64,000 bases of DNA, taken from the NCBI RefSeq assembly GCF_041647995.1, contig NZ_JARRIB010000006.1, forward strand, positions 1 to 64,000, in the 5' to 3' direction. This document shows, one piece after another, positions 15,079 through 33,377 of this stretch. Under the pieces are notes generated by a model. The model did no database searches. It worked only from the letters and a program-made list of their open reading frames with translations, and was not told the origin of the DNA. Every line of letters starts with the position of its first letter. Within the stretch, counting starts at the first letter, position 1. Origin of the DNA: Pyrococcus kukulkanii. GTDB taxonomy: Archaea > Methanobacteriota_B > Thermococci > Thermococcales > Thermococcaceae. A program made the translations under genes and the position numbers.

Positions 15079-15633
15079 TTAGACTGAAGGAGCTTTGCCC
15101 TCTACTCTCTGAAAACTTGACTCTTCAGCGTTTACATAAATATCCTCGCCAAGTATGCTGAAGTCAAGAAGGTTAACCACTTGGAACATCTCTTTGATAG
15201 GCCTAGCAGTATACTCCAAGAAAGTTGCAAAAAGCACGTCTTTACCGAGCTCCCGTACCTTTTGTGCGAACGGTAAAAAGTCCCCATCCCCCGAAACTAT
15301 TACAAATGCGTCGATTGGTCTTTCATAGGCTATGCTCATTCCATCAACTATCATAACAATATCGGCCGTGCTCTTTGGCCCATTCTCCTTCATAGTAGAT
15401 CTTGCCAAGATTACTTTGATTCCCATACTCTCTAAATTGTTGGCAGCGTTAGGATTTCTGATAGCGAAGGGGTTAGCATAGAACCTAGCTATTGTGACTT
15501 CATAACCAAGGGATTCAAGGAACTTAAATAACCCCTTCCAATCTATAGCCTTATCAATGTGCACCTTCCTACCAATAATATTCTCCAGACACCTCCAGAC
15601 ATTTTCTCCGTCAATCAACACGGCAGTCCTCAC
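15079..15633 (-). CDS. NYN-domain (PIN-like) ribonuclease, LabA/DUF88 type
   Basis: The protein shows the acidic pocket of NYN/PIN-like metal-dependent RNases: LIDGENVW (Asp8) at the start of strand 1, STADIVMIVDGM in the middle and VSGDGDFLPF (two Asp) before the last strand. Total length 184 aa is one compact domain plus a short tail. NYN proteins cleave structured RNA. The start is GTG 15633 behind gggggtg. It lies between a 497-codon unknown gene and two small unknown genes on the same strand, an arrangement I do not know as a described system. Confidence 0.85.
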   Translation of the reverse strand: MRTAVLIDGENVWRCLENIIGRKVHIDKAIDWKGLFKFLESLGYEVTIARFYANPFAIRNPNAANNLESMGIKVILARSTMKENGPKSTADIVMIVDGMSIAYERPIDAFVIVSGDGDFLPFAQKVRELGKDVLFATFLEYTARPIKEMFQVVNLLDFSILGEDIYVNAEESSFQRVEGKAPSV

Positions 15634-15769
15634 ACCCCCACCCCCGCAATATTATGTCAAACAACATTTGTAATATTAGAACTGGCCCTCCCCATAATAT
15701 TAGATGGAGGGCTCCACAATGCAAAATTTTTACAATGCTATATCCCAAGCATAGGGGGTAAAAAAACGG

Positions 15770-17260
15770 TTAGAGCGGTTCTTTAGCTATTAGGTCTTCC
15801 AAGATGTTCTTTATTTTCTCCCCCCTGAAAAGCTCCAATACCCTAATGAGTGGCTTTGGAAATGTCGTGGTGAAAACTTCAGAGGGCTTTGAAAACGCTG
15901 AAAGCAGATCCCTGCCCTCCTTCTGCCTTAGGAGGAGGTAGTCGAGAGATATGTCGATGCCCTTAGAAACGCTGAGCACATCAAGAGCCTCCTCGTCAAT
16001 CTCCCCACGCTCGACTTTTGCCCTCGCTTCGACAACTCTTTCTTCGCTCAGGCCTACAGCCCTATAGTACGCCCGCCTGATAATGTCCCTTAACTTCTTT
16101 AAGTTCTCCTTGACTTCCTCCCTACTGGGTTTTTTCCTGAGGGTTATCCCATTTATCCTGAGCTCATTCCCAGAGAACTGCATCCTAAATAAGGGCAGAG
16201 GGTAGTCCTCAAAACAGTAGGGCAGGAACTCAGCGTGTATAAACTCTTCCCCCTCTTCAGGGTACACAAAAGGCCTGATACCTTCCCTGGAAAGTATCTC
16301 TATTTCTTTGTCAAATTTGTGACAGAAGATGCTCTTGTAGTCCTCAAGAGTTAAGGCCTCTCCCCGCTCGAGTTTTGCCCTTATCTCCTCAATAGTGTGG
16401 GGGCACTCCACAAAGGCATCGAAGAGGATTTTCTTGTGGAACTTAACCACAACATCTGGCGGAAATTCTTGAATTGCCCTGATTGGGTACTCAAACACTA
16501 CGTAGCGAAAGTCAAGCGTGTTGACCTCCGGACCAAACCTCAAAAATACCTCATCCCCCTCTTTAAAAACACCCACATAGGTGTAGAAAAACGCTTCAAG
16601 CGTTTCGAAGTCACTAGCAACAGTTTTCTCAAAAAGCAAGTCAACAATCTCTTCAGGGATGCCCTCCCGCTGGACTTGAACCTTCACAAGGCGTTTTATA
16701 AAGTAGTGAATGTGTTTTAACTCAGAGATACTAATAGGTTCCTCGTGCTCATAGATCAGCATATACTTTCTGCCCCTCTCATCCTCGTTGAATGTCCTCC
16801 TCTCCTGAAGCTTTTTTATGCTGTCAAGCGACTCTCTAATAAGCAGATAGGCCCTCGGCGCCATTATTCCTGTCCTGTTGAGCTCTTCAATCAAACTCCT
16901 AGTTGCAGTCACCAGGAGCCTGCGAAGGATCGCTGATGGAGAGGTCTCATGTTTAAGTGCCAGGCCATACAGCTTTATCCAGTAAGGAAACGAGATCCTG
17001 ATAGAGAGTAGTTTTGGGGTGAGGAGCTTTTCGAACTCTCTAAGGTAGTCCTTTTTTGAACGCTCCATCAGCTCCTTTGCCTCAGCAAACTTTCCCTCTT
17101 TTACAAGCTCCGAAATCACCTCCTGGATCTTCTCTCTTTCAACGAACCTTGCGACTTTTCTCTCAAAGTCATAGTAAGGGACTTTGTCAGTTAGGGCTGC
17201 AATATACTCCATATCCTGCAAACTCTTGTAATTCAACATATTAATATCCACGTATTTCAT
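15770..17260 (-). CDS. Large uncharacterised helical protein, first gene of the NYN cluster
   Basis: Start ATG 17260 follows ggtggtggct; the upstream GTG at 17272 is less likely. The 496-aa product is charged and mostly helical (IQEVISELVKEGKFAEAKELMERS). A basic helical segment ISFPYWIKLYGLALKH (about 90-105) is a possible RNA/DNA or partner surface. Several DYPLPLF- and ECPHTIEEI-type segments suggest two or more domains. I see no catalytic motif. The GC-rich structured RNA at 17330-17425 lies just upstream of this gene. It is the probable large partner of the NYN nuclease. Confidence 0.6.
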   Translation of the reverse strand: MKYVDINMLNYKSLQDMEYIAALTDKVPYYDFERKVARFVEREKIQEVISELVKEGKFAEAKELMERSKKDYLREFEKLLTPKLLSIRISFPYWIKLYGLALKHETSPSAILRRLLVTATRSLIEELNRTGIMAPRAYLLIRESLDSIKKLQERRTFNEDERGRKYMLIYEHEEPISISELKHIHYFIKRLVKVQVQREGIPEEIVDLLFEKTVASDFETLEAFFYTYVGVFKEGDEVFLRFGPEVNTLDFRYVVFEYPIRAIQEFPPDVVVKFHKKILFDAFVECPHTIEEIRAKLERGEALTLEDYKSIFCHKFDKEIEILSREGIRPFVYPEEGEEFIHAEFLPYCFEDYPLPLFRMQFSGNELRINGITLRKKPSREEVKENLKKLRDIIRRAYYRAVGLSEERVVEARAKVERGEIDEEALDVLSVSKGIDISLDYLLLRQKEGRDLLSAFSKPSEVFTTTFPKPLIRVLELFRGEKIKNILEDLIAKEPL

Positions 17261-17329
17261 AGCCACCACCAATTCTGTAATTTGAGAAAGGCATCTAAAG
17301 TTTATTGGAGGGGCTACATAGGCATTCTG

Positions 17330-17425
17330 GTATCATTCCCTTAAGGGGAGAGCTCCTGGGCCGATGGCCCGGCCTGCGGGCAGGCCAAAACTGGTAACGG
17401 GAGTAGGTTATGGGCCCGCAAACCG
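17330..17425. ncRNA. GC-rich structured RNA candidate upstream of the NYN cluster
   Basis: Three perfect hairpins follow each other in an otherwise AT-rich gap: CCCTTAAGGG (17338-17347), GGGCC-gat-GGCCC (17358-17370) and GGCCTGC-gg-GCAGGCC (17371-17386). A further GC-rich tail TGGGCCCGC lies at about 17411-17419. GC islands of this kind in hyperthermophile genomes usually mark stable non-coding RNAs. Strand is uncertain. A box-like ATGACGGA follows at 17434. It could instead be a leader or attenuator of a transcript. Confidence 0.45.
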
Positions 17426-17639
17426 ATTTGAGTAATGACGGATACTATAACACTTCACATACACCACTTAGTGGACATGTTTATCACTTGTATTATCTGT
17501 AATGAACTACACAAACAAGTCTGTTCGAACCATAAAGCGTCCCTCAACTCTTCCTAACATACCTTCCAACACTAGGACAATTAACTCTAGAGTGTAGGCT
17601 CCTCGTCTACTTCTGTTTACTCTTTTTACCCGTTGTGGG

Positions 17640-17850
17640 GTTGTGTGGATAGAAATATTTATATACTTCTAATATGGATAATTGGTTAGATAATCCGGGT
17701 TTAAATAAATAATTATTCAATTGTTTAATTGTTGCTTTATTTAATTGAATAATTATTTCAGCTTTTTTATATAATATATACGCCTGGCGCGGGGGCAACC
17801 CAGAAAACTGTGGGGAAACGGGTTGACCAAACAATAATTATTATATTAAT
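17640..17850. other. AT-rich, origin-like region with a 16-bp inverted repeat
   Basis: AAATAATTATTCAATT (from about 17705) and AATTGAATAATTATTT (ending about 17758) form a perfect 16-bp inverted repeat in a 70-90% A+T stretch. It is followed by a second hairpin CAACCC...GGGTTG (about 17797-17826) around TGTGGGGAAAC and then another AT-rich run. An AT-rich unwinding region with long repeats next to G-rich motifs is the usual look of a replication origin of an archaeal plasmid. A recombination site or a strong promoter are alternatives. No replication initiator gene is recognised nearby. Confidence 0.35.
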
Positions 17851-20102
17851 TGTTTAAGGCCACCCCCGTTCGCCCCACTTTTCGGGCTTTGGTTTTTGGC
17901 GGGTTTGTTGCTGGGTTGCCTCTTCTGTTGTTTTTGGTTTGGTTGTGTTTATATATTCCGCAGCGGATGTTTGAGTGGGGTGTGGGTGTGGGGCGTGGGA
18001 AGATCGTGGTTGTTGTGGTTCTTGTCGCCATTGTTGTTGGTGTCCTCTTCGCCCTCAGGAAGCCGTCAGAGCCTAAGGTGGGCGCCCAGATCCTGGGCGT
18101 CGAAGTGGAGGGCGACAGCGTAGTCTTCACCCTCAACTCCACGCCACCCAGGAAAGTCCTCTTCAACGGCAGACCAGTCGAGTTCGAAGTTCAGAACACT
18201 ACGGTGAGGTTCTCAGCCCCCTACTCCCTCCTGGGGCGGGTAAATAAGATCACTCTTGAATTCCCCTCGGGGAACGCCACTCTCACTTACATCACGCCCG
18301 AGGTTGAGTTGAGGGCTTTCGTGAGCTTCCCCGGGAAACCCCTCGCCCTCACGGGCAGCTTCTCGTGCGGGAACGTGAGCGTGGGCGGTAGTGTAGTGTC
18401 CTTTACGGGGAGGGCGAGGGCGCCGGGCGAGTGCTCATTCGAGGCCGTGGGCCTCTTCGAGCACCCATTAGTCCAAGTCGACGCTGGGGCCTTGAGCGTC
18501 GTCTCCCCCCAGCTCGCCGGGGAGCTCGCGGGGCTCTCCAAGGTCATCCACACCCTCAAGGTCGAGAAGGTCGTGAGGGCGTTCAAGATCCCCCTAGAGG
18601 ACTGGGACTACTACATCTACCCCCCAGCCCGGAGCGGTGGGTTAGTCGGGTACGCCTACGACTTCTCTAACGTGACGCCTGGAGCTGTTGGAACCCTCTT
18701 TAAGAGGGGCCTCGTGGAGGCCGTGAACCCCGATGGTAAGGCCCTCTGCGTGCCGGGCTTAAGTGGGTGCCAAGGCCTGGCCGGGCCACAGGGCGGCCTC
18801 CCGATCATCGTCCCAGAAGAAGGAGACAAGGGCCACCACGTAATGCACGTTGAGGTTCCACTATACTTAGACGAGGGCGAATACATAATCGTAACCTCAT
18901 TCACCTGGGAAGACAAAGATGATAAGAATGGGGACAAGCACGAGTTCATAATATCGGTTAAAGACGAGGACGGCTACAGCCTCGCAGAGAGCCCAGCAAT
19001 AGAGGAGAAAGAGGCCGGCACAACGGGGAGCCCCTTCCAAGTCAGCTACCCAATGCAGGTCAAGGCCAACACGAGGGGCAAGTATAGGGTGGTCATAGAC
19101 GTTTACCAGACCCAAGACGCAGGCCCCAAAGAGAAGGCCCTGATACTCAACAAGATACTAATCTTGAAGATGCCAGAGGCACCAGCCACGATGGCCATCG
19201 ACATCCCATCCCTCTTCACCGAAGTGGACTTAGACAACCTCAACACCCGCAACTTAATAGAAGGCATAGCCTACGTCGAGCCCACAAAGGACATATACCT
19301 ATACAACAAAACTGAAGCATTCATTAGAGCAGAAGATAACATAATATCAGTAATCTCGCCAAATAGGACTGCACTTGAGTATGTGCCTACTTCCTTCGTG
19401 CCTGACTACACGATTGACTGGCTTGGGTATTATGATGTTGTGGGTGGGAGGCAGGCTGGGTATGCTTTTGATGCGGTAGTTCTGAGGAGGGGGCTTGCTG
19501 GTGTCTCTGCAGTCTATAAGGACGGGGGGATTTTCTCCTACGACCCGAGGTTGGAGGTTACTGTTACTTTCGGGCCGTCGAGCCTCGCCTACTACTATGC
19601 GGTGGGCTGGTTTGCGTCCGCAACGAATGCCGAGCTCCCGAGCTGGTATGACAGGCTGACCCTGAGGGCATACGATTACGTCTCCTCAATGAGCTACACG
19701 GTTGGTGGCCTTGAGATTGAGTCCCTTTACGAAAGTTCAGTGAAATTCACGCTTGAGCCAACAGAACAGGTGGTCGCTGGGGACACTACGGACTTCAGCG
19801 AGGCGTTATACTTTGTCGTAGGGCTCAAGGACTACTCCGAGCCCTACGACTACAAGACTGGGAGCGTGGAGTGGGGGATTTTACTCAAGAATGTGAGGCG
19901 TGGGGCTGACTACTTGGTGGCCATGCTTAGAAGGGCCGATACTGGAGTAATAGTGGGATACTGGACTTACCCTCTCCCCAGCAACTGCAACCCGTGCAAC
20001 ATACTCCTATCACTCGACGGGCTGACTGACAGGGGCGAGCTGTTGAACTTCATCGGGCACAAATACGTGCTGACTGTTAGTGGTGTAGTGAGGGGGCGAT
20101 GA
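17850..20102 (+). CDS. Large membrane-anchored surface protein, GC-rich, virus/plasmid type
   Basis: The frame gives up to 750 aa with two N-terminal hydrophobic helices (about 11-36 and 51-68, VVVVLVAIVVGVLFAL). A long beta-rich outside portion with no known catalytic motif follows. Sites such as NVS, NTT, NKT, NRT would allow N-glycosylation. The TTG at 17850 has no good ribosome site; ATG 17968, just before the second helix, is the alternative start. The first two-thirds is strikingly GC-rich compared with the genes on both sides, suggesting transfer from a high-GC relative. Large surface proteins of this build occur in integrated Thermococcales plasmids and viruses, but I cannot assign one. 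Confidence 0.65.
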   Translation: MFKATPVRPTFRALVFGGFVAGLPLLLFLVWLCLYIPQRMFEWGVGVGRGKIVVVVVLVAIVVGVLFALRKPSEPKVGAQILGVEVEGDSVVFTLNSTPPRKVLFNGRPVEFEVQNTTVRFSAPYSLLGRVNKITLEFPSGNATLTYITPEVELRAFVSFPGKPLALTGSFSCGNVSVGGSVVSFTGRARAPGECSFEAVGLFEHPLVQVDAGALSVVSPQLAGELAGLSKVIHTLKVEKVVRAFKIPLEDWDYYIYPPARSGGLVGYAYDFSNVTPGAVGTLFKRGLVEAVNPDGKALCVPGLSGCQGLAGPQGGLPIIVPEEGDKGHHVMHVEVPLYLDEGEYIIVTSFTWEDKDDKNGDKHEFIISVKDEDGYSLAESPAIEEKEAGTTGSPFQVSYPMQVKANTRGKYRVVIDVYQTQDAGPKEKALILNKILILKMPEAPATMAIDIPSLFTEVDLDNLNTRNLIEGIAYVEPTKDIYLYNKTEAFIRAEDNIISVISPNRTALEYVPTSFVPDYTIDWLGYYDVVGGRQAGYAFDAVVLRRGLAGVSAVYKDGGIFSYDPRLEVTVTFGPSSLAYYYAVGWFASATNAELPSWYDRLTLRAYDYVSSMSYTVGGLEIESLYESSVKFTLEPTEQVVAGDTTDFSEALYFVVGLKDYSEPYDYKTGSVEWGILLKNVRRGADYLVAMLRRADTGVIVGYWTYPLPSNCNPCNILLSLDGLTDRGELLNFIGHKYVLTVSGVVRGR

Positions 20103-20427
20103 TGAAGGAGGATTTGTTCGCTTAGTTGGGAAAGTTTGGGTTTTCCTTGCTCTTCTGCTGGTTTAAAAATATACATGTTAATGATCTCCTCGGAAAACTT
20201 TTTTCATAAGTGTAATAGTTGTTAGCTGTTCTTTTTGGTTATTATGCTTTCTCTTTTCTTCTTTTTAGTGGAATCGTCTGGAAAGCCCTGTTAGTCGGGA
20301 ACCTCCTAGCTTTTTGTTATAAAGTTTTCTTATAGGCGATGCTGACTGAAAGTGTTTGAATATATTTGGGAGATGAAGGCAAAAAGTTTAAAAAGATTGG
20401 TTCCTATATCATAGCAGGTGATCGGAG
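20103..20427 (+). promoter_or_regulatory. Intergenic region with the promoter of the ATPase operon
   Basis: No gene is seen after a 7-codon frame (MKEDLFA) that follows the surface-protein stop. A TATA-like AGTTTAAAAAG lies at 20385-20395, about 33-43 bases before ATG 20428, and a ggtgatcggag ribosome site precedes the start. This would drive the four-gene operon. Confidence 0.5.
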
Positions 20428-20901
20428 ATGAAGGTGGACACTCGGCAACTATTAAATTTGTTGACGGGCGTAGTGGAGAGGGAGAGGGGCAGTTATGGAG
20501 CTGATATTGAAGCCGTTGATTTGCTATTGTTCTCGAAGGGGATAGAAGAAAAAAGAACTATTCCAGAAGCTTTAGATAGTATTGACCAACTCCGAAAATA
20601 CGAAAAGCAGTATGATGTCCCTATCTTGCGGATAACAGACCAAAGTGTCGAGGAAGTTGGACAGAATGGAGTAAGTTGGCTTCTAAGGAAACTGGACAGG
20701 GCAGGACTTGGGAGATTCGGGGTAATAATTGGGGATGAAGTTGTCCGATACCCTAAGTTGAAGATAACAACAGATAGTGGAATAATATCGAGGATACTCA
20801 GGAGTTCTAGGGTGAGAGGAGACGGGTACATGAGTTCTGTCATTATGAGAAATCTTAGGTGGTTTTTGGATAGAAGAAAAGTTTATAGGGGGTTTATTTA
20901 A
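20428..20901 (+). CDS. Uncharacterised protein, first gene of the AAA+ operon, 157 aa
   Basis: The product begins with acidic helices, then shows an alpha/beta pattern (VPILRITDQS, FGVIIGDEVVRYPKLKI) and a basic C-terminus (RNLRWFLDRRKVYRGF). The pattern suggests a small Rossmann-like or nuclease-like fold, but the catalytic residues of known families are not seen. Its stop overlaps the start of the next gene (TAATG), so the two are translationally coupled. The function is unknown; the C-terminal arginine cluster might bind nucleic acid or the partner protein. Confidence 0.6.
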   Translation: MKVDTRQLLNLLTGVVERERGSYGADIEAVDLLLFSKGIEEKRTIPEALDSIDQLRKYEKQYDVPILRITDQSVEEVGQNGVSWLLRKLDRAGLGRFGVIIGDEVVRYPKLKITTDSGIISRILRSSRVRGDGYMSSVIMRNLRWFLDRRKVYRGFI

Positions 20902-22334
20902 TGACGCTCCATTACCTGCTTGATAACCCTATTTTATTGACAAAGATCAGCCAACTCAGCCTTGAGGGGGGTGTTACTCTTAGTTATATAACTTATGAGG
21001 CTGAAAGATTTCTAGAATACGGAAAATTAAACTATCCTAACGATTTCCACGTTAAAGATGTTGTAGACAAGGCTGTCGAATACCTCAGTAGTTTCTACCC
21101 GCAAATTGGGGACATTAGGAAGGCGTTAGAAGAGAGGGTGAAGTATAGGATCCTGCCGGCGCTAGTATTATGGCGTGGATTAATAAATTTCTCCATTCGT
21201 TTTCCAGGCTGGGAGTATCACCTAATAAGGAATAGTGAAAAGGAGTTTTTGAAGTTTTCTGAGGAAATACTCATAGAGTTTGAAAATAGGAAGAAAGAGC
21301 GGAAAACGTACCCGATCCCACAGCTGATAAATAACGTTATCAGGCGTAATATGGACAAAAAGGCTGGGCTAATGTTAGCAATTTGGCTAAACATTGCTTA
21401 TGAGTCTGAGCTCATTAACTCTCTAGTGTCATTTGAGATCGTTCGCTTTAACACGGCAGTGAATAAGCTGCTCGACGAAATTGTGAGCACAATTATCAAG
21501 CTTAGTAACGAAATTGGGTTCAGAAGGGATGCTACCTCAAGGGAGAGGTTGGCTCCAGAGGAGAAACTAAGGAATGAGCTTGAAAAAGCGATCTTGTCCT
21601 GGTACTTTGCCCTTAATGGGGATTACCTTGGACGTGGGAAAAAGGCCCTCGCGTACCTGTTATCAGTATATCCAGAATGGTTCAAGTACTTCAAGGAAGA
21701 CGTGCTGTTTTACCCACTTGCATTGGCCATATACGAAATGTTCATAGCCTATGGAGGGGATAAGAGAGATCTAGATGAGATTCCATCAATTTCTGTCCTA
21801 ACTCCGGATTCAATATTCAGCTCAATTGAAAGATCAAAAAACCCTAGGACGAATCTCCTGTTTGCACTCTCCACAGTTCTTTCACTACTCAATAGGATGT
21901 ACCTCGTAGTGTCATCTGAATTCAGCAAGAACCTCAAACCAGAGACGATAGAAAAATACCTTGTAACGCCAATAGACGTTATATCGAGCATTGCTTTAAT
22001 TGCAAGTAAAAAGGGCGAAGACGATTTCGAAGTCTCGTTCAAAGAGATTTCAGCACAGCTTGCAGAGTTCTATTCCAAAATTGGAATGGAGAAGATACTA
22101 GCAAAGGCTGGCGTAGAAGTGAGTCTGACCCCCGATTATATTTTCAAGATGCAATCTCTATCGGACAGTCTTTCGATCTTAGCCAACTTTAGCCATATAT
22201 TTTCACCCATAACAACGTTCTCAGCCCTACCCAAACTTGAGCTAAGTCAAGGATATGCTGACTCATTTCTAGTTAAAAGAAAAAACTTCGATGAGTTGAT
22301 ATATGAATACTTTACTGAAAAGAAGAGGAGGTGA
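20901..22334 (+). CDS. Uncharacterised all-helical protein, second gene of the AAA+ operon, 477 aa
   Basis: The start codon shares one base with the previous stop. The protein is almost entirely helical, with long amphipathic repeats (AVNKLLDEIVSTIIKLSNEIG, ALSTVLSLLNRMYLVV) and a few hydrophobic helices too charged at the flanks to be clear membrane spans. No motif is recognised. In defence and partition systems, large helical proteins next to an AAA+ ATPase often form the sensor or scaffold. That role is inference here. Seven bases separate its stop from the ATPase start, with ggaggtg between. Confidence 0.6.
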   Translation: MTLHYLLDNPILLTKISQLSLEGGVTLSYITYEAERFLEYGKLNYPNDFHVKDVVDKAVEYLSSFYPQIGDIRKALEERVKYRILPALVLWRGLINFSIRFPGWEYHLIRNSEKEFLKFSEEILIEFENRKKERKTYPIPQLINNVIRRNMDKKAGLMLAIWLNIAYESELINSLVSFEIVRFNTAVNKLLDEIVSTIIKLSNEIGFRRDATSRERLAPEEKLRNELEKAILSWYFALNGDYLGRGKKALAYLLSVYPEWFKYFKEDVLFYPLALAIYEMFIAYGGDKRDLDEIPSISVLTPDSIFSSIERSKNPRTNLLFALSTVLSLLNRMYLVVSSEFSKNLKPETIEKYLVTPIDVISSIALIASKKGEDDFEVSFKEISAQLAEFYSKIGMEKILAKAGVEVSLTPDYIFKMQSLSDSLSILANFSHIFSPITTFSALPKLELSQGYADSFLVKRKNFDELIYEYFTEKKRR

Positions 22335-22340
22335 AGAAAA

Positions 22341-24086
22341 ATGAGGAGGGAGGTGGGGAAAGTGAAGAAGCCTACCTTAAAGGACAACCCCTTTAGTGTT
22401 AAGGCCGACATAAAGTTAGAAGACATACCAAAAGTCTTTGACCTAGAACAGCTTGACAAGAACCCACTAGCAAAATATCTTAAACAAATAATAAGCAAGG
22501 GAATTAGGTACGCAATTGTCGTAGGCGGAAAGGGGACAGGGAAAACTTTCACACTCAAAACTATTGAGGAAATTTTTGAGGAATACGGTTACACCACTAT
22601 AGTAGTATCTGGGGGAGAAGAGGATAACAAAATAAAGCAAAAGTTGGATGAAGCCGAAAAGAAACTCAAAAACGGCGAGAAAGTCCTCCTTATCATTGAC
22701 GATGCGGCCGATATGCCGCTTGATAATTTCAAAGAGTTCATTTCAAAGATATACAAATTATATCTAGACTATTCATCTTTTGCATTCGCAATCGCTACTC
22801 AGACAGAGGTCAGGAGAACATATGAGCAAGTATTCAGGACTATAAAGAGTTATACCTCTGAGTTTACAAAAATATTCGGGCCAAGTGTGGACTTTGAGAG
22901 CATTATAAGGGACCTCTACTACAAGTCTCTAACTAGTAAACATGAAGCTTTTGTCTATGAGGGGCTTAGGGCCGGAGTGCTAATAAGCCTAGATGCGTTT
23001 TGGGGAGGATTTAGATCAGCACTAAAGATTGAGAAATCCAAGCAGATAATTAAAGAATACATAGACTTCTATTCAACAGGAGTTATTGATTGCAAACCAC
23101 AGCAAGAAATAATAGATATTATGGAAAAAGATGAGTGGTTAGAGTACGTCCTTATTAAGTTGCTGGAGAATCCACCGAAAATAATTAGTATTGATAGTAA
23201 ACCTATCATTGTTGAAAACACTGGGAGCAGTGTTGCTCAATCCTTAAATGCGGTCTCACTAAACGAGATACTCGAAAGATTGTATGAAGACCTCAAGGAG
23301 GGAAATGTAAAAGACAAGAATGATATAGATGATGTCAGGAAGGTACTTTTCGGAAAACTTCAAGGCAGCGGATCCAGAATTGCCCCAAATGACCTTATAA
23401 ATGCAATAGACGTGGCATTCAATGGGACGAATGTGTTGGCCGATATTCTAGATAAAGTAGGGCTTGCTTACGTGAAAAAGAATGAAGCTCTTAAGGAACA
23501 TGTACAGAGCATTAAGAAGAATTACAAGGTGCCACTATTCATGAGAGTAGAAGTAAAAGATGCAGAAGGGGGCGTCAGCACTATTCATAAGATGTTTTTC
23601 CTATTAGCACGCCTTTATATCAGGCAGCAGAAAGGCAAGAATGATGGAGAGGACAATCAGAATAAGAAAAACAGGAGAGGGGGAGGTTCACAGCAACTAT
23701 ACTCGTCCGATCGCAGAAAAATCAGAGATCTACTTCAAATAAAAGAACTAGAAAGCGTGCCAAACCACATCACAGTAATTTGCGACAAGTTTAGTACCCT
23801 CAATAAATTGCTTAATATCCCTGAATTTAGGAGAAGATATGAGGAAGCACTATCAAACTTGGAGGTTCTAGTAATAGAGGACTTGTCTGACCGTGATAAG
23901 GCAGTAATACTTGAATTGTCTAGGTTATCTCAGTTACAGGGAGTTGGGAGCATACCTCATTTAGAGCACTTGGTCAAAATATTCTACAGCACAGTGCTAT
24001 TATCCATATCTCTTAGCTTCAGGAAACCAAGATGGGGAGCGTCATGGTTGGCAAAGTTATTGCTTCCAAAAATAGTAGAGAGTTAG
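22341..24086 (+). CDS. AAA+/STAND-like ATPase, third gene of the operon, 581 aa
   Basis: Walker A is GGKGTGKTF (62-70), Walker B VLLIIDDAAD (115-124), and a sensor-like FAIATQTEVRR follows at about 148-158. The remaining 420 residues are mainly helical, with a central linker rich in Lys/Asn/Gly (about 430-450, NRRGGGSQQ) and a conserved-looking C-terminus (SFRKPRWGASWLAKLLLP). The linker suggests two modules. The ATPase resembles ORC/Cdc6- and STAND-type P-loop proteins but lacks clear family signatures. It is probably the motor or switch of the operon. The site ggaggtg precedes ATG 22341. Confidence 0.75.
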   Translation: MRREVGKVKKPTLKDNPFSVKADIKLEDIPKVFDLEQLDKNPLAKYLKQIISKGIRYAIVVGGKGTGKTFTLKTIEEIFEEYGYTTIVVSGGEEDNKIKQKLDEAEKKLKNGEKVLLIIDDAADMPLDNFKEFISKIYKLYLDYSSFAFAIATQTEVRRTYEQVFRTIKSYTSEFTKIFGPSVDFESIIRDLYYKSLTSKHEAFVYEGLRAGVLISLDAFWGGFRSALKIEKSKQIIKEYIDFYSTGVIDCKPQQEIIDIMEKDEWLEYVLIKLLENPPKIISIDSKPIIVENTGSSVAQSLNAVSLNEILERLYEDLKEGNVKDKNDIDDVRKVLFGKLQGSGSRIAPNDLINAIDVAFNGTNVLADILDKVGLAYVKKNEALKEHVQSIKKNYKVPLFMRVEVKDAEGGVSTIHKMFFLLARLYIRQQKGKNDGEDNQNKKNRRGGGSQQLYSSDRRKIRDLLQIKELESVPNHITVICDKFSTLNKLLNIPEFRRRYEEALSNLEVLVIEDLSDRDKAVILELSRLSQLQGVGSIPHLEHLVKIFYSTVLLSISLSFRKPRWGASWLAKLLLPKIVES

Positions 24087-24157
24087 TGCCCCCCATTTCC
24101 TCTTTTCTCAAAATAAACGATATGCTAACCCTCTTAGGGTTAAGAGGGGGGAGGAAA

Positions 24158-24646
24158 ATGGAAATTGGACATAAGGTGTGGGAAAATATAACTCCTGAGG
24201 AGCCGAACATAGTAGTTGAATATGAGTATCCTACTTACGAAGACATAGAGGACGGGCCCAAAGAAGTAAGAATTAAAGTTCTTCGGGAGGGCATGATAGG
24301 CTTTGGACTCTCTGAAGAAGATGTAATCATTTCCTACGTTCCTATAACGTGCAATGAGTGCCATAGAACTTATTTACTCCCTACCCATATGGAGAAAGTA
24401 GCTACATATGAAAGAGAGATGGGGCCAGAATATCAATGGCTGGTTACCTATGAAGGAGAATGCCCTGTATGTAAGAGGAACAATATAGAAGTTGAGATAG
24501 AGGCTTTTGAATACCCACCAGGAAACATAGGTGCTATTAATGTGATAAGACTAGAGGGCGCAAGATTTCCTAATAAACTGGAGATTGATTCAAAAATAAA
24601 CGAATTACTAATAAAAGAGCTAATCAAGGGCGAGCTTGGATTGTAA
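24158..24646 (+). CDS. Zinc-ribbon protein, fourth gene of the AAA+ operon, 162 aa
   Basis: I choose ATG 24158 because aggggggaggaaa precedes it; a longer frame from 24032 overlaps the ATPase gene and is unlikely. Two CxxC knuckles, CNECHRT and CPVCKRN, are separated by about 40 residues and form a zinc ribbon. Around them is a beta-rich acidic domain (EPNIVVEYEYPTYEDIED). Zinc ribbons of this type bind nucleic acid or protein. The gene follows the ATPase by 71 bases on the same strand, so it probably belongs to the same transcript. Confidence 0.65.
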   Translation: MEIGHKVWENITPEEPNIVVEYEYPTYEDIEDGPKEVRIKVLREGMIGFGLSEEDVIISYVPITCNECHRTYLLPTHMEKVATYEREMGPEYQWLVTYEGECPVCKRNNIEVEIEAFEYPPGNIGAINVIRLEGARFPNKLEIDSKINELLIKELIKGELGL

Positions 24647-24984
24647 TTAAAAGGGAAGTCATAGTAGAAGGAAAATTAAACAAGGAAAAGAAGCTCGTGA
24701 AAGAGTGGGTCGTAGGCTTTAATAAGAAGAAAGAATGCCTGCTTATAATTAGGAGCCCTAATGCAAAACACAACACCGCAGATCAAAAAGTTAGCAGAAC
24801 TCCACGTAATACAAAACATATAGCAAAAAACCTAAAGCAAAAGTGGACAATACTCACTTTACTAGGCCTATTCGTAGTTGGGTGTAGAAAATTGTGTATG
24901 AAGTATTCAGCAGAAAGGTTTAATAGGATGGATCTCAAAAATATACACCAAAGTTATCAAAGCTGTTAACTATGGTGGATAATC
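24647..24984 (+). other. Degraded coding remnant between the ATPase operon and AbiE
   Basis: In the +1 frame relative to the zinc-ribbon gene, an open stretch to 24969 reads REVIVEGKLNKEKKLVKEWV and then NKKKECLLIIRS before losing protein character. It has no good start. It looks like the front of a lost gene, perhaps a fifth member of the operon. A ggtgg site for AbiEi lies at its end. Confidence 0.3.
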
Positions 24985-25728
24985 ATGAGAATTGAACTGC
25001 TCAACAAACTCGCAAGAAAGAGGGTCTTCACCATAGATGAAGCAGCTAAGATAACAGGAATCGACAAAAACACCCTAAAGGTTCTCCTCAGCAGGCTCGA
25101 GAAAAAGGGCTTGGTTGAAAGGGTTGAAAAGGGGAAATATATTATTGTCCCGCTTGGAGCGGAAAAGGGAGAATACACGCTCCATGAGTTCGTAATAGGC
25201 TCACTCCTTGTAAAGCCATCAGCCATAGCCTACTGGTCGGCCCTCAACCATCACGGATTTACCGAGCAAATCCCCAACACAGTCTTCGTCCAGACGACGG
25301 CAAGAAAGAAAAGACAAGACCTCAGGGTCTTTGGAGTAAGGTATAAAATCGTCAAAATAAAGCCCGAGAAGTTCTTCGGCATCGAGAAAGTCTGGATTGA
25401 GGAGTTCCAAGTACCCATAACAGAGAGGGAAAAGACGGTAGTGGACTGCCTGGACAAGCCGAGGTACTGCGGGGGGATAATTGAGGTCGCCAAAGCCTTC
25501 AGGGAAGAACTTGAGGCAGAAAAACTCAGAGAGTATGCGCTGAGGATGAACAGCTCTGCGGTCGTAAGAAGGCTCGGCTACCTGTGTGACTATTTCGGGG
25601 TCAATATTGACTTGCCAAGGCCAAAAACGAGGAACTACATTCTTCTAGACCCAACAATGCCAAAAGGGGGAAACGTTGACAGCAAGTGGAGGGTCATAGT
25701 TAACGTTGAACTGGAGGGGTTGGAGTGA
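24985..25728 (+). CDS. abiEi: AbiEi-type antitoxin and autoregulator
   Basis: The protein (247 aa) has the AbiEi plan: an N-terminal winged helix (FTIDEAAKITGIDKNTLKVL, LEKKGLVERVEKGKYII, about 14-55) and then the AbiEi domain. That domain shows SAIAYWSALNHHGFTEQIP and a late TEREKTVVDCLDKPRYCGG segment typical of the family. AbiEi represses its operon and counters AbiEii in type IV systems. Its stop overlaps the toxin start (GTGA). The start ATG 24985 follows ggtggataatc. Confidence 0.9.
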   Translation: MRIELLNKLARKRVFTIDEAAKITGIDKNTLKVLLSRLEKKGLVERVEKGKYIIVPLGAEKGEYTLHEFVIGSLLVKPSAIAYWSALNHHGFTEQIPNTVFVQTTARKKRQDLRVFGVRYKIVKIKPEKFFGIEKVWIEEFQVPITEREKTVVDCLDKPRYCGGIIEVAKAFREELEAEKLREYALRMNSSAVVRRLGYLCDYFGVNIDLPRPKTRNYILLDPTMPKGGNVDSKWRVIVNVELEGLE

Positions 25729-26519
25729 TCCCAATACTTGAAATCAAGGCAGTTGCGAGGAAGGAGAGGATCCCCGAGAGCACTGTGGAGAGGGACTATG
25801 CCCAGAACTGGCTTTTATTCGGGCTCTCAAAGACATCCCTTAAAATGGCGTTAAAGGGAGGAACCGGAATAAGAAAGGCCTACATTGAGGACTACAGGTT
25901 TTCCGACGATCTGGATTTCACGCTTTTGGAGGAATATGATAGGGAGACAATACGAAGAGAACTACTAGAGGGTGTTAGGATTGCAAGAAAAGAGAGCGGT
26001 ATCAGTTTTAAAGAGGAAGTCGACTTTAAAGAGACGCCAAATGGTTATGAGGCAAGAGTCTACTTCAGGATAATAAGGGCATCAGGAGCGCCATTAAAGA
26101 TCAAAATCGATCTAACCAAAAAGGAAAATGAACCAATCTTGCTCCCGTTAGAAAAAAGGAAAATTATTCATCCTTATTCTGATGAGTGCAATGCTGAAAT
26201 TTTTACGTATTCCCTTGAGGAAATCTTTGCCGAGAAAGTCCGCTCACTCTTCCAGAGAACGAGACCAAGAGATTTGTATGATGTGTGGAGATTAAAGGAT
26301 ATCATCGAATTAGAGACTGCTCTTAACATTCTTCCCGAAAAGTTCAGACTTAAGAACGTTCAGCTTGATATGAAAACATTCGAAGGACGCAGGATTTATT
26401 ATGAGAGGGCTTGGGAGCGGAGCTTGGCACACCAAATAAGCCCGCTCCCGGAATTTGATAGAGTCTGGAATGATGTTCTGAAATTCTTGTCAGGGAGAGT
26501 GTTAAGCTATGAGGATTAA
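25725..26519 (+). CDS. abiEii: AbiEii-type nucleotidyltransferase toxin
   Basis: The protein (264 aa, GTG start overlapping the abiEi stop) carries the AbiEii signature: LKMALKGGTGIRKAYI, then RFSDDLDFTLL with the catalytic Asp pair (about 60-64), and late EEIFAEKVRSLFQRTRPRDLYD with the Lys and Arg of the active site. AbiEii toxins use NTPs and cause growth arrest during phage infection. A degraded second copy of this gene lies at 54.6 kb. It overlaps the recombinase gene by 11 bases. Confidence 0.92.
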   Translation: MIPILEIKAVARKERIPESTVERDYAQNWLLFGLSKTSLKMALKGGTGIRKAYIEDYRFSDDLDFTLLEEYDRETIRRELLEGVRIARKESGISFKEEVDFKETPNGYEARVYFRIIRASGAPLKIKIDLTKKENEPILLPLEKRKIIHPYSDECNAEIFTYSLEEIFAEKVRSLFQRTRPRDLYDVWRLKDIIELETALNILPEKFRLKNVQLDMKTFEGRRIYYERAWERSLAHQISPLPEFDRVWNDVLKFLSGRVLSYED

Positions 26520-27216
26520 AGCTGTCGTCTACTCCCGTGTGAGTACTGGAGAGCAAAACCCCAAGGCCCAGCTTGAGGTGGTCCTGCAGTACGCCCAAGA
26601 GAGGGGTTACGAGGTTGTAAAAATTTTGGAGGAGCAGACCAGCGGGAGCACAGACCCGCTGGAAAGGCCAGTTTTTAAAGAGCTCCTAAAATTCGTAAAA
26701 GAGAACAACATTGGGGTCATTATTCTCTACGATCTCACGAGGTTCTACAGGGCTGCAAGCCCCACACAGGCCCTAAACAAGCTCAGGCAGATTATGGATG
26801 AGTATGAAGTGTTCTTCGAGTTTGCGAGGGAGCCTGAAATAGAGGACCCACTCTTCCGGGAATTCTGGATGTTCGTCAAGAGCTGGTTCGCGAGCTACGA
26901 GCGCTTGCAGACTAGCTTGAGGACAAAGTACGGCCTGATGAGGCTCAAGAAGGAAGGGAGGCTCTATCATAGGCCCTCAGTTGTCCATTACTATGCTGCC
27001 TGGCTTTATGACAAGGACTTCAGCGAGCTTACTAAGGAAGAGCTCGAGAGTGCAAAGAAACAGTTAGTAAAGATTGTGAAAAAGTACTGGGACAACCCGG
27101 CAGTGAAAAAGACAAAAATTGGGGAACTGTTAAAGCAAAATGAATTGAGGGAGATGTACATAAGATTTCCAAAGGCCCCAGATAGTTATTTCACCTGGAG
27201 GATCCTTCAAAATTGA
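26509..27216 (+). CDS. Small serine recombinase (resolvase/invertase catalytic domain)
   Basis: The N-terminus shows the serine recombinase core: VVYSRVSTGEQ (Ser12 nucleophile; Arg10), then the long connecting helices and a Tyr/Arg-rich DLTRFYRAA near 72-80. Total length 235 aa leaves about 80 residues for a helix-turn-helix-like C-terminus (VKKTKIGELLKQNELREMY). Enzymes of this class resolve or move circular elements. It overlaps the toxin gene, so the whole AbiE-recombinase block may travel as a unit. IS607 TnpA has a leading helix-turn-helix which is absent here. Confidence 0.85.
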   Translation: MRIKAVVYSRVSTGEQNPKAQLEVVLQYAQERGYEVVKILEEQTSGSTDPLERPVFKELLKFVKENNIGVIILYDLTRFYRAASPTQALNKLRQIMDEYEVFFEFAREPEIEDPLFREFWMFVKSWFASYERLQTSLRTKYGLMRLKKEGRLYHRPSVVHYYAAWLYDKDFSELTKEELESAKKQLVKIVKKYWDNPAVKKTKIGELLKQNELREMYIRFPKAPDSYFTWRILQN

Positions 27217-27270
27217 TACATATCCACCGTCTAATTTTTTGGATACTGTTTGAAGCCATTTGATTACTTT

Positions 27271-27310
27271 TTTCTTTCTCAAGCCTCGCCCTTCAGGGCG
27301 GGGGAGGCCA
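27271..27310 (+). mobile_element. Solitary IS200/IS605-type hairpin end
   Basis: A T-rich lead followed by AAGCCTCGCCC-ttca-GGGCGGGGGAGG matches the hairpin ends at 32.0 and 56.4 kb (same CGCCC-TTCA-GGGCG core). In IS200/IS605 elements such sub-terminal hairpins are bound by TnpA at the left end. No transposase gene adjoins it. The nuclease gene on the minus strand runs into it and takes its last residues and stop codon from the hairpin. Confidence 0.6.
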
Positions 27311-28909
27311 GTCTCTAATCCTTTCAATGAATTCCCTAATTGGGATTAGCTTGGCATTTTCTATGTCAAGCGTGTAGAACTCAATTAAATCCCCGTATCT
27401 CTTTTTCAACCAATCCCTTAAAGTCAGCACGTCTTTGAGATAGATCATCAGCTGGGGATTTGGAATAACAATCCATGTCTTGAAACCTCTCTCAACCCTG
27501 CTTTCTGCAGTTTTTCTCAGCTTTATAAGAGGTATGCAAGTTCCATAGAGGGTTTCAACTTCTATTGCAACCTGTCCAAGTTTTTCATCATCAACGAAGA
27601 CATCAATCTTAATATCTCCAAACTCTTTTTCTGTGGAGATTTTGATAGTATCCCCATTATCAAAAGGTAGATGCATGGATATGCCGAGCTTTCTGTTTAA
27701 GTACTCAACAACAAATGCCTTCAGTGCATAGTGTAGCAAACTTTCATTTTCACTCGGATTAACCAAAAGAGCTGTTAGAATTTTGTTACCATCTGCAGTA
27801 ATGATATATTTCGTAAATCGTTCTAGTTTCTCCAAAAAAGAATTTTCTAAGCCAATAGCATACTCATCAAATGCAACTTTTTTATCGGGAGGTCTCTCAT
27901 TAAATATTCCCCACATCAAATTGGGCAACTTAAATAACATATCTCTGTCACTAACTTTAATCTCCAAGAATCTTGGCAACTTTGTAAAAACTTTTTCTTT
28001 ACTAAAATGAATGTTCCATAATTTCCTCTTTAGTTTTTGCAGGTTCTTAGCTTTTCCATAAAACACTAAGAATCCAAATCCCTGGGCGTATATTTCCCTC
28101 AATTTGTCGTATAAGGCCTTTTTAACTAATAATTCTTCTAGTTCTCTGGCTTCTTCTTTGGCTTTCTCTCTCCCAGTATCAACTTCGTCAACTTCTACCA
28201 CACAAATAGAGTTTCCAGCCTTGATCTCATCAATTTTCTCCATAAGGTTTTTCGAGGATATGTGGATCGCATTAGGCAAGCTACCGACTCTAATCCTGTA
28301 AATCTCTAGTAGTATCCTCTTTAAAAACTCGATGTACTCTAAGGAACGATCCTCTGGCCTTTGAGCAAAAATTACTATTGGATGCTCAGAGATTACATTA
28401 AAGGGACTCCCAAAAGTCCTCTCTAACAAGTTCAGGTCTTCCCACAAGAGGGGCGTTCCCGTGAAAGAATCTCCACAAGAGGTTGCAAAAGCTTCTCTCT
28501 TTACGCCTACCTGAATAACCTCAAAGAATTTGGGAGTGACTGGAACAAACCTTGGTAAAGACAGGGATTTCACCGCCTTCTCAAGAATTTCACTTCTATC
28601 CTCAAAAGCAGGTTCAACGCAAATGAGCTCAGGAGGATGCAACTTTGCAACGTCTCTGCTTTCAATGCGTTCGGATTCCGTGAAAACAGGCTTTATGATT
28701 ACTGGAGCAATGTCAACATTTTCCATCTCTTTTTCCTTGATCTCTTCCAGTTGAAGAAATACTGGTAGAACCGCTTGAATTGTAACCTCTCTAATTACTT
28801 TATCTTTTTCCACAATTGGTGCTGGGACTTTTATCACTGGGATCTCCTGAGCCATTGCCTCCTTTTTCTTCTTTTTTGTTTTGCTCTTCTCAATTAGGAA
28901 ACTTTTCAT
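27293..28909 (-). CDS. PD-(D/E)xK-type nuclease-like protein, third gene of the Ntn-hydrolase operon
   Basis: ATG 28909 overlaps the stop of the preceding gene (ATGA) and follows gggtgggag, so I use it rather than 28930; 538 aa. The first 120 residues are low-complexity, rich in Val/Pro/Glu (EIPVIKVPAPIVEKDKVI). A middle domain (about 130-330) is unrecognised. The C-terminal domain has ESLLHYALKAFVVEYL, then DIKIDVFVDD and VAIEVETLYG with basic RKTAESR after it. That is the E...D...ExE order of PD-(D/E)xK nucleases. The last residues (WPPPP) come from the IS-type hairpin. It is the likely effector of the operon. Confidence 0.6.
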   Translation of the reverse strand: MKSFLIEKSKTKKKKKEAMAQEIPVIKVPAPIVEKDKVIREVTIQAVLPVFLQLEEIKEKEMENVDIAPVIIKPVFTESERIESRDVAKLHPPELICVEPAFEDRSEILEKAVKSLSLPRFVPVTPKFFEVIQVGVKREAFATSCGDSFTGTPLLWEDLNLLERTFGSPFNVISEHPIVIFAQRPEDRSLEYIEFLKRILLEIYRIRVGSLPNAIHISSKNLMEKIDEIKAGNSICVVEVDEVDTGREKAKEEARELEELLVKKALYDKLREIYAQGFGFLVFYGKAKNLQKLKRKLWNIHFSKEKVFTKLPRFLEIKVSDRDMLFKLPNLMWGIFNERPPDKKVAFDEYAIGLENSFLEKLERFTKYIITADGNKILTALLVNPSENESLLHYALKAFVVEYLNRKLGISMHLPFDNGDTIKISTEKEFGDIKIDVFVDDEKLGQVAIEVETLYGTCIPLIKLRKTAESRVERGFKTWIVIPNPQLMIYLKDVLTLRDWLKKRYGDLIEFYTLDIENAKLIPIREFIERIRDWPPPP

Positions 28910-30087
28910 CTCTCCCACCCGAGCACACATCCCCAGATATACTCCCTATCTCCTTCTCTCCTAATTTCCCTAACGTATGCAAGTCCAAGGAACATTAAAG
29001 GCGCCATAAACGCTATTAGATCGCTGTAATTCACACTGTAGCTCTTAAATTTAGCCTCTCCCCCTTTAATGCGGAGAAGATAATCACTCTCCCACACTCC
29101 ATAGTAGTCACTATAATAAGAACCATGCCATTTAAACTGTTCTGGCAGATTAAATTTTACAACTCTATCGCCTAAATCAAAGGGCATGGTACTTTCTCCA
29201 TATCTCCCCTTAACAAACTCAAGAGCCTTTGGAAATCTCTCCACTGAAATAAATTCTTTTAATTGTCCTCCTTGAACCTCAACATATCTTGCAAACTCGT
29301 CTATTGCATTGAAGTACTCCAGAACTTCTGATTTCTTGAATAGTTCGTAGATGTCCATAATTATTTTCCAAATCAGCCATCCTGGACATCCATCAACTAA
29401 CCCCATAATGTTAAGTTTGTCATTTAGAGCTTCACCTGGCAAGTCTGGGCCTGCAATTTTTCCTATTACAATACCATATCTCTCCAAGGTCCTCCTTGTC
29501 TCTTCTTCAAAGAGGCGAGGATATATGTTCTCGGCGTAGTACTTTGGGATTGAGTATATAGAAACAATAAAGAATGAGATTGGATTGTACAGTGGTAGCA
29601 GTGCCTTTCCATCGTTCAGAACATCTCTGACAGCCTTTATGAGCGTCTCTATCTTCGTAACTTCATCTTCAATCTCTACCGTCGGTTTCTCAATCTCAAG
29701 TTTCTCGTAAATTTTATCAAGACTACTTTCTATGTCCTTAGTAATTGCCACAACTTCAGTTTCTTGAATTGAAGGGGCAACATATTCGCATGCTTCTTCA
29801 AGAGATTTGCCCCCTACCACTCTTGTGTTTATCTTCTCTATGTCCTCCTCTTTTATGGCAATTCCATAAAATTTTTTGTAAAAGTCCGAGCCAAAGAAAA
29901 TCTCCTTCCAAAGGGATGGGTTCTCCTTAATAAGCTCTCCTACACTCCTATTTTCAGCTTCTTTTTTAAGTAGTTCTCTAATTTTTAAGAACCTTTTGAC
30001 GCTTGCATAGAACTTTGCAATGTTTTTGGTGAAGTAATCTCTCCAAGCTCCCTCATCAAAGTATCTAATCTCCTCCACTTTCCCCAT
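28906..30087 (-). CDS. Uncharacterised protein, second gene of the Ntn-hydrolase operon, 393 aa
   Basis: I choose ATG 30087, four bases after ggtggag, over the TTG at 30105; it overlaps the Ntn-hydrolase stop by 23 bases. The protein begins with acidic helices, holds a hydrophobic segment NPISFFIVSIYSIPKYY (about 186-202) and another at the end (LIAFMAPLMFLGLAYV, about 361-376). A tyrosine-rich beta region lies before the latter (WHGSYYSDYYGVWESDYLL). The hydrophobic parts are borderline for membrane insertion. No family is recognised. Its position between a protease-fold and a nuclease-fold gene suggests it links or senses. Confidence 0.65.
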   Translation of the reverse strand: MGKVEEIRYFDEGAWRDYFTKNIAKFYASVKRFLKIRELLKKEAENRSVGELIKENPSLWKEIFFGSDFYKKFYGIAIKEEDIEKINTRVVGGKSLEEACEYVAPSIQETEVVAITKDIESSLDKIYEKLEIEKPTVEIEDEVTKIETLIKAVRDVLNDGKALLPLYNPISFFIVSIYSIPKYYAENIYPRLFEEETRRTLERYGIVIGKIAGPDLPGEALNDKLNIMGLVDGCPGWLIWKIIMDIYELFKKSEVLEYFNAIDEFARYVEVQGGQLKEFISVERFPKALEFVKGRYGESTMPFDLGDRVVKFNLPEQFKWHGSYYSDYYGVWESDYLLRIKGGEAKFKSYSVNYSDLIAFMAPLMFLGLAYVREIRREGDREYIWGCVLGWER

Positions 30088-30877
30088 CTTTCTCCACCTC
30101 TCCAAAGAGCCCTACCAGTGCCTTCTCAACCTTATCCTCCCCAACCACATCACACAAGAGGTTCAGGAGCTTGATAAGCTCCCTCCTCTTCCTCGTCTTC
30201 TCCTTAAACTCTCTCAGGGCATCTTCTTTCACTGGGCCAAGAACAACCTTATCCCTCTCAACCCTCATCAGCCAGCTCTCGCCAACAAAAGGACCAACAG
30301 CGGGGTCAATCTCGCTAACCATGTCGATTATAAACGTTGTCAGAACACCCAAATTTGCCGGAGTTTCCGGCTCATAACCGAGAAGCTTAAGCAAAAGCAT
30401 GCCGCCGGTAATTGAGCCGCAGCCAATCATTGCAAACCCAGGATTATCATGAACAGGTTCTGCTAAACCCCTGCTGTCAAAGTGGTAAATCGAGGCCCTT
30501 CCCTCCAAGTCAACACTTGCCAGGATCATGTTGAAGCTCACGTCAATCCCCATATTCCTCAATTCTCTAAACCTTGCAATTAAAGTCTTCTCCACCGCAC
30601 TGACAATCTCTTGAAACTCTTCATAGCTGGGTGTCCGTTTTTCATCCTTCATGAACTCCCTCACTACAGAATCCACGACTGAATAACCATACTTTACAAT
30701 TGCCGCATCGCCGGAACCGCCAGCTATTGCAACAGGAACATCAGCAAGGGAAACTGGATGTATCTTTTTGGCCTCATAACTTATCGGCCCCCAAGTCACC
30801 TTAGAATCAGAAGTCATGAGGACTGCTTCCTTCCCGTCATCCTCCATAACCCACTTTAAAGCAATCACAAGAGTCAC
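30065..30877 (-). CDS. Proteasome-like Ntn hydrolase, first gene of a three-gene operon
   Basis: The 270-aa product reads (M)TLVIALKW, then VLMTSDSKVTWGPI and EAKKIHPV. Removal of Met would expose Thr as N-terminal nucleophile; the Asp in TSDSKV and the Lys in AKKI match Asp17 and Lys33 of proteasome beta subunits. Downstream GSGDAAI and MIGCGSITGG fit the fold. The C-terminus has an extra helical tail (about 225-270). Proteasome beta proteins in this genus are housekeeping, but this one is divergent and lies in an island with overlapping unknown and nuclease genes. The start is GTG 30877 behind ggtgag. Confidence 0.75.
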   Translation of the reverse strand: MTLVIALKWVMEDDGKEAVLMTSDSKVTWGPISYEAKKIHPVSLADVPVAIAGGSGDAAIVKYGYSVVDSVVREFMKDEKRTPSYEEFQEIVSAVEKTLIARFRELRNMGIDVSFNMILASVDLEGRASIYHFDSRGLAEPVHDNPGFAMIGCGSITGGMLLLKLLGYEPETPANLGVLTTFIIDMVSEIDPAVGPFVGESWLMRVERDKVVLGPVKEDALREFKEKTRKRRELIKLLNLLCDVVGEDKVEKALVGLFGEVEKDGESGGD

Positions 30878-32914: not shown

Positions 32915-33377
32915 TTAAACAGATGACGATTGAGAAACAAGGATAAATAAATTTAACAATCTAACTCCCCAAGAAAAATTAAAGTTAGGCGTATATGAGG
33001 AAAGCTTAGATATTATGGGTAAGCAAGAACCTTTTTTTAATTTGTCAAATACCTCATCGAGCTTTTCCTCACTTAACACTTTATGATTATACGAGATCAT
33101 ATAAAGCTTGATGGTACTCTTAATTATCGGTTTTATCCCGGGATAGCGTCTAACATCCTTATCCTCGATTAGGACGTTTAATTCTTTGAACCCGCTTTTC
33201 AAATTGGAGGTTATCTCGACAACTATTACTGTTCGGCTAATTCGATTAAACTCATTGGATGAGATAATTAATGCAGGCCCTGTTTTTGTCCTGCTCAAAT
33301 CCTCATAAAGGCAAAAGAACAATTTCTCCCTGTTTAAACTCCACCCTGGGCCTCCTAATAATCGTCCCAAAATTCAT
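32915..33377 (-). pseudogene. PemK/MazF-like toxin, frameshifted
   Basis: The downstream frame has the MazF core: YEDLSRTKTGPALIISSNEF, then VVEITSNLKSG. The proper N-terminus lies in another frame, from ATG 33377: MNFGTIIRRPRVEFKQGEIV, the typical QGEIV strand. It stops at 33310 in TTTGCCTTTATGAGG unless one base is added. The ATG overlaps the antitoxin end, the usual coupling. MazF toxins are mRNA interferases; this one should be inactive as read. Its C-terminus is also longer than normal. Confidence 0.75.

What the first reader, a model, noticed from the sequence alone, without database searches (positions are those of the whole stretch)
20428..24646. Tight four-gene operon around an AAA+ ATPase with no recognisable family
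Seen: TAATG overlap, 7-base gap, then 71-base gap; an ATPase with clear Walker A and B and a hydrophilic linker; a 477-aa all-helical protein; a zinc-ribbon protein; a small alpha/beta protein. A single promoter precedes gene 1. Known: helical scaffold plus P-loop switch plus small effector is a common plan for defence or partition modules. Inferred: a defence, partition or plasmid-maintenance complex.
Basis: partly seen in the sequence, partly recalled or inferred. Interest (0 to 1): 0.65.

Follow-up and report, generated by a model that had tools for sequence, protein, structure and literature searches.

The report
Orphan ATPase operon in archaeal island
A real four-gene transcription unit built around an ATP-burning protein sits in a patch of foreign, toxin- and defence-rich DNA in a heat-loving archaeon; three of its four proteins have no full relative in hundreds of sequenced archaea, so it is probably a rare accessory or defence module whose function sequence alone cannot reveal.

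Summary
The operon is real: four same-strand genes (157, 477, 581, 162 aa) behind the only TATA-like promoter of the stretch, with a 1-base overlap, a 6-base gap and a 71-base gap. Gene 3 is a P-loop AAA-type ATPase without an assignable family; it fails the Orc1/Cdc6 model. Its first ~95 residues (NPF box plus Walker A) resemble a chromosomal ATPase family of the same archaea. Gene 4 has a two-knuckle zinc core whose only relatives found are solo chromosomal genes in three Thermococcus genomes. Genes 1 and 2 have no convincing relative among about 350 and 396 archaeal genomes, plasmids, phages or viral contigs. The quartet was found in one genome. It lies in a chromosomal region of at least 34.7 kb that nearest relatives lack at this site, between genes shared with Thermococcus barophilus plasmid pTBMP1, which does not carry it, and an AbiEi/AbiEii plus recombinase cassette. 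Best reading: horizontally acquired island cargo, most likely an ATP-driven nucleic-acid complex for conflict between host and mobile elements. That function is inferred from neighbourhood and domains only. It matches no known defence system or replication initiator, and plasmid-backbone partition is disfavoured.

The parts
20379..20396 (+). BRE/TATA-like promoter element, the only one in 20000-25000 by the pattern used
20416..20423 (+). Shine-Dalgarno AGGTGATC of gene 1
20428..20901 (+). Gene 1, 157 aa, basic (pI 9.7), no family, no convincing relative
20901..22334 (+). Gene 2, 477 aa, no family, no convincing relative in 396 archaeal genomes; one borderline hydrophobic stretch near residue 319
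22341..24086 (+). Gene 3, 581 aa, P-loop AAA-type ATPase (NPF box, Walker A GGKGTGKT, Walker B LLIIDDAAD), hydrophilic linker about residues 424-447, unassigned C-terminal part
24087..24157 (+). 71-base gap with a predicted hairpin pairing over the ribosome-binding site and start of gene 4 (z = -2.0; weak)
24158..24646 (+). Gene 4, 162 aa, acidic, two-knuckle zinc protein (C65-x2-C68, C102-x2-C105 and EYPPG motif shared with solo Thermococcus homologues)
24985..25728 (+). Flanking: AbiEi-like antitoxin; the block conserved in other genomes begins at 24914
25725..26519 (+). Flanking: AbiEii nucleotidyltransferase toxin
26509..27216 (+). Flanking: serine recombinase (Resolvase N-terminal domain)
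15079..17272 (-). Flanking: NYN-domain protein (15079-15633) and 500-aa protein (15770-17272) shared with plasmid pTBMP1 at 65% and 78% identity
1..34731 (.). Variable region (left end lies beyond the contig start): collinearity with the nearest relative G003 begins at 34732

Best explanation
A horizontally acquired accessory operon, read from one promoter, carried as cargo in a chromosomal genomic island next to a toxin-antitoxin/recombinase cassette. Shown: the genes, the ATPase motifs, the zinc core, the island setting, and the rarity. Inferred mechanism: the gene 3 ATPase oligomerises on, or is switched by, nucleic acid; the gene 2 protein acts as adaptor or scaffold; the acidic zinc protein (gene 4) and the basic gene 1 protein act as contact or effector subunits; together they recognise and block or dismantle an incoming mobile element. 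This is a conflict/defence-type module rather than a housekeeping one.
For: One transcription unit. AAA-type ATPase; weak best matches include nSTAND_NTPase5 (1.6e-5, below cut-off), AAA_22, phage clamp loader (9e-4), and the defence models mad8 (0.005, over residues 57-281) and BrxD (0.015). Patchy distribution: the quartet in one genome, gene 2 in none of the other genomes searched, including a 77%-complete genome of the same species. Weak codon fit to the host. The region from the contig start to 34731 is absent at this site in G003, where its two flanks are about 30 bases apart. The same region holds an OLD-like nuclease, AbiEi/AbiEii, PIN, PemK-like, NYN and a nucleotidyltransferase-like gene. 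A comparable mosaic island with AbiEi/AbiEii and pTBMP1-like genes is known in Pyrococcus yayanosii (PMC5126054).
Against: No defence-family model matches significantly. No nuclease, protease, deaminase or other effector domain was recognised. The solo chromosomal relatives of gene 4 show that its domain is not confined to conflict systems. Neighbourhood is weak evidence: islands collect all kinds of cargo.
Confidence: 0.4

Rival explanations
1. Replication or partition module of an integrated plasmid: gene 3 is an initiator- or loader-type AAA+ protein and genes 1, 2 and 4 are origin or partner proteins.
For: Neighbouring genes are shared with plasmid pTBMP1. The N-terminal NPF-Walker A segment and the clamp-loader and DnaC-like weak matches suit a loader-type ATPase.
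Against: TIGR02928 does not match gene 3 (host copy on contig C3). pTBMP1 and G009 carry the shared neighbour genes without the quartet. No relative in 72,556 plasmid records for any of the four proteins. No origin-like direct-repeat array in 17000-28000.
Confidence: 0.2
2. Genes of an archaeal virus or provirus remnant (packaging, replication or host take-over), not selected for host benefit.
For: Orphan proteins are typical of archaeal viruses; an integrase fragment and a large membrane-anchored 750-aa protein with no family lie nearby.
Against: No match in 50,697 phage records, none convincing in IMG/VR scans, no significant PHROG for genes 1, 2 and 4. No capsid or terminase was recognised among the proteins scanned.
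Confidence: 0.15
3. Target-selection ATPase module of a transposition system: gene 3 like TnsC/TniB, gene 4 like a zinc-finger target selector.
For: The host ATPase family that resembles the gene 3 N-terminus has weak TniB matches; a serine recombinase lies about 2 kb downstream.
Against: No DDE transposase in the operon; no inverted repeats in 17000-28000; the recombinase belongs to a separately conserved block with AbiE starting at 24914.
Confidence: 0.08

Closest known systems
Chromosomal NPF-type AAA ATPase family of the same archaeal class (L007, L006, L004, L002; Pfam AAA_22 with a TrmB-like winged helix)
   Same: NPF box, spacing to Walker A and Walker A itself: 31% identity over residues 11-89 of gene 3, hhalign probability 86, E 5e-6.
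   Different: Similarity ends after Walker A; gene 3 is 581 aa with a linker and a different C-terminus, and no operon partners are shared.
Orc1/Cdc6 replication initiators
   Same: P-loop ATPase of the AAA+ class in an archaeon.
   Different: Model TIGR02928 does not match gene 3; the host has its own full-scoring copy elsewhere.
MADS (mad8), BREX (BrxD) and nSTAND ATPases of defence systems
   Same: Weak ATPase-level similarity (mad8 E 0.005 over 225 residues; BrxD E 0.015; nSTAND_NTPase5 E 1.6e-5).
   Different: None of the partner proteins scanned matches a MADS or BREX model; scores are at superfamily level.
Solo zinc protein next to endA and kbl in three Thermococcus genomes (L051, L052, L053)
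   Same: Both CxxC knuckles and the E-MG-E-Q...YEG-CP-C...E-EYPPG pattern: 33-38% identity over the core.
   Different: Single gene in a stable chromosomal place; lacks the long C-terminal tail of gene 4.
Pyrococcus yayanosii island PYG1 and T. barophilus TBG1/pTBMP1
   Same: Mosaic island with AbiEi/AbiEii and pTBMP1-like genes (PMC5126054).
   Different: The quartet is not on pTBMP1 and no quartet was found in any other genome searched; PYG1 itself was not compared gene by gene.

Membership tests
AAA+ / P-loop ATPase superfamily (gene 3) | Walker A and Walker B at suitable spacing, profile match | tested here: met
   GGKGTGKT and LLIIDDAAD; AAA_30 E 2.7e-6, just over the cut-off
AAA+ / P-loop ATPase superfamily (gene 3) | Sensor 1, arginine finger and lid in a folded model | not tested
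Orc1/Cdc6 initiator | Match to TIGR02928 | tested here: not met
   One search lists no TIGR02928 match; one search finds only host loci outside the window
Known anti-phage defence system (PADLOC-DB 2.0.0) | Significant match of operon proteins to system models | tested here: not met
   Only mad8 0.005 and BrxD 0.015 for gene 3; none for genes 1, 2 and 4
Known anti-phage defence system (PADLOC-DB 2.0.0) | Protection against virus or plasmid | not testable with these tools
   Needs an infection or transformation assay
Plasmid backbone (replication/partition) | Carried by related plasmids | tested here: not met
   No plasmid match for any of the four proteins; pTBMP1 lacks the quartet
Zinc-ribbon protein (gene 4) | Two CxxC knuckles conserved in relatives | tested here: met
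   C65, C68, C102 and C105 invariant in A1; core modelled as beta strands with pLDDT mostly 79-92 over residues 61-120
Tn7-like transposition module | DDE transposase and terminal inverted repeats | tested here: not met
   No such family in the ten ORFs scanned; no inverted repeats in 17000-28000

The most novel reading that the evidence does not exclude
A four-component ATP-dependent defence or element-control system not yet described: an NPF-type AAA ATPase with two proteins of unseen families and a zinc subunit recruited from a Thermococcus chromosomal protein.
Probability: 0.25. Interest if true: 0.6.

Novelty: new variant of a known kind. Interest (0 to 1): 0.3.

Why it matters
If it is a defence module, it would add a multi-subunit ATPase system from hyperthermophilic archaea, whose antiviral repertoire is poorly known, and its heat-stable subunits would be convenient for structural work. 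If not, it remains a clear example of island 'dark matter': a real operon whose proteins have almost no sequenced relatives.

Tried and rejected
Profile libraries gave nothing for genes 1, 2 and 4 beyond noise. PDB sequence searches were uninformative; the zinc-finger hits are short C2H2 motif matches with no stretch, or one short stretch, passing alone. IMG/VR matches to gene 1 (L039, L040): L039 is a helicase sharing only the 'FGVIIGDE' stretch, so rejected; L040 gives the same match and was not read separately. The Cytophagales match to gene 4 (L055) is a short chance stretch in an unrelated 1099-aa protein, rejected. G047 for gene 2 (E 8e-4, 28% over part of the protein) and G253 and G322 for gene 1 (E about 9e-4) are weak, unconfirmed matches that I treat as background. 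Foldseek of gene 4 gave no significant match. The 90-aa ORF 24697-24969 was rejected as a gene: codon score no better than the other frames.

Full report
Observation. The four genes are present as described, on the + strand: 20428-20901 (157 aa), 20901-22334 (477 aa), 22341-24086 (581 aa) and 24158-24646 (162 aa). Gene 1 has AGGTGATC and gene 3 GGAGGTGA; no clear word was found before gene 2. The BRE/TATA-like pattern used occurs once between 20000 and 25000, at 20379-20396. In 500 order-1 simulations of the region the longest ORF averaged 94.5 aa and never exceeded 176, so genes 2 and 3 cannot be chance. Gene 4 is confirmed by homologues. Gene 1 is the least certain: its length is within the simulated range and its codon score barely prefers its frame, but its start signal and its overlap with gene 2 favour a gene.

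Proteins. Gene 3 carries Walker A GGKGTGKT and Walker B LLIIDDAAD. Its best Pfam match is AAA_30 (2.7e-6, just over the cut-off), followed by sub-threshold nSTAND_NTPase5 and AAA_22; PHROGs gives a phage clamp loader at 9e-4; PADLOC gives only mad8 at 0.005 and BrxD at 0.015. In relatives, only its first part (about residues 11-116) is matched, at E about 1e-3 to 4e-5; those I read belong to a family of roughly 400-aa chromosomal ATPases. A profile comparison with that family gives probability 86 and E 5e-6 over residues 11-89 and stops after Walker A. The Orc1/Cdc6 model does not match gene 3 and finds the host's own copy on another contig.

Gene 4 is acidic, with two CxxC knuckles. Its core is shared (33-38% identity) with solo 135-141-aa proteins of three Thermococcus genomes. 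In the two listed fully, G083 and G110, these lie between an acetyltransferase plus a tRNA-endonuclease-like gene on one side and a glycine C-acetyltransferase-like gene on the other; the gene names are my reading of the translations. A profile search of all 115 genomes of the phylum finds only these three plus the window copy above background. The AlphaFold model is confident only for the beta-rich core, and Foldseek against the PDB gives no significant match. Gene 1 (basic, pI 9.7) and gene 2 match no family. Gene 2 finds nothing convincing in 396 archaeal genomes or in the 115 of its phylum; gene 1 nothing convincing in 347. Plasmid, phage and viral-contig searches were negative or gave chance matches. 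Gene 1 modelled alone is not interpretable (pLDDT 43).

Setting. The window is the first 64 kb of a 75-kb contig of an archaeon in the family that contains Thermococcus. From 34732 rightwards it is collinear with the nearest relative G003 at 92-96% identity; to the left nothing corresponds at that place. In G003 the two flanks lie about 30 bases apart, whereas in this genome the left flank sits on contig C3 near 392551, followed there by transposase-like genes. So at least 34.7 kb, and about 47 kb if C3 and C6 join, is inserted or rearranged; that join is inferred, not shown. The quartet is flanked on the left by genes shared with plasmid pTBMP1 of T. barophilus (500-aa protein 78%, NYN protein 65%) and on the right by an AbiEi/AbiEii plus serine recombinase block that is also on that plasmid and in other genomes and whose conservation starts at 24914. 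Neither pTBMP1 nor G009 carries the quartet in the corresponding place. No DNA match to 20428-24646 was listed in the 71 family genomes searched. The same region holds an OLD-like nuclease, PIN, PemK-like and nucleotidyltransferase-like genes, a UvrD fragment and an integrase fragment. A similar mosaic island is described in Pyrococcus yayanosii (PMC5126054).

Interpretation. The evidence supports a rare, horizontally acquired cargo operon. The step from 'island cargo with an ATPase' to 'defence' rests on neighbourhood and on superfamily-level similarity, which are weak. The plasmid-backbone reading is disfavoured because related elements lack the quartet and the initiator model fails. I therefore give 0.4 to a conflict/defence-type ATPase complex, 0.2 to replication or partition, 0.15 to a viral remnant and 0.08 to a transposition module, leaving the rest to unknown alternatives. 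That the four proteins form one complex is an assumption from gene order.

Noticed in passing
window 27293-30877 (-): Three overlapping or adjacent minus-strand genes: a proteasome-subunit-like protein (270 aa, PF00227 E 4e-4, just under the cut-off), a 399-aa and a 545-aa protein without family. The 270-aa gene has DNA relatives at about 68-71% identity in other genomes.
   Followed up: partly
window 24914-27216 (+): AbiEi/AbiEii plus serine recombinase block that recurs in several genomes at 72-86% DNA identity with a sharp left edge at 24914; related copies on pTBMP1.
   Followed up: partly
window 17358-17427: About 70-base element with relatives at 81-89% identity at many places in many genomes of the family (several per genome); no Rfam match; the minus strand folds better than shuffles (z = -2.4).
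   Followed up: partly
window 24087-24166: Hairpin predicted to cover the ribosome-binding site and start codon of gene 4 (-26.2 kcal/mol, z = -2.0); possible translational control, weak evidence.
   Followed up: partly
window 17850-20102 (+): 750-aa protein, 56% GC against about 40% in the operon beside it, hydrophobic N-terminus, no family match.
   Followed up: no
window 10992-11531, 5167-5724, 6275-6580, 32915-33370 (-): Short genes that look like fragments or remnants: phage-integrase C-terminus, UvrD-like C-terminus, a small AAA domain, a PemK-like toxin.
   Followed up: partly
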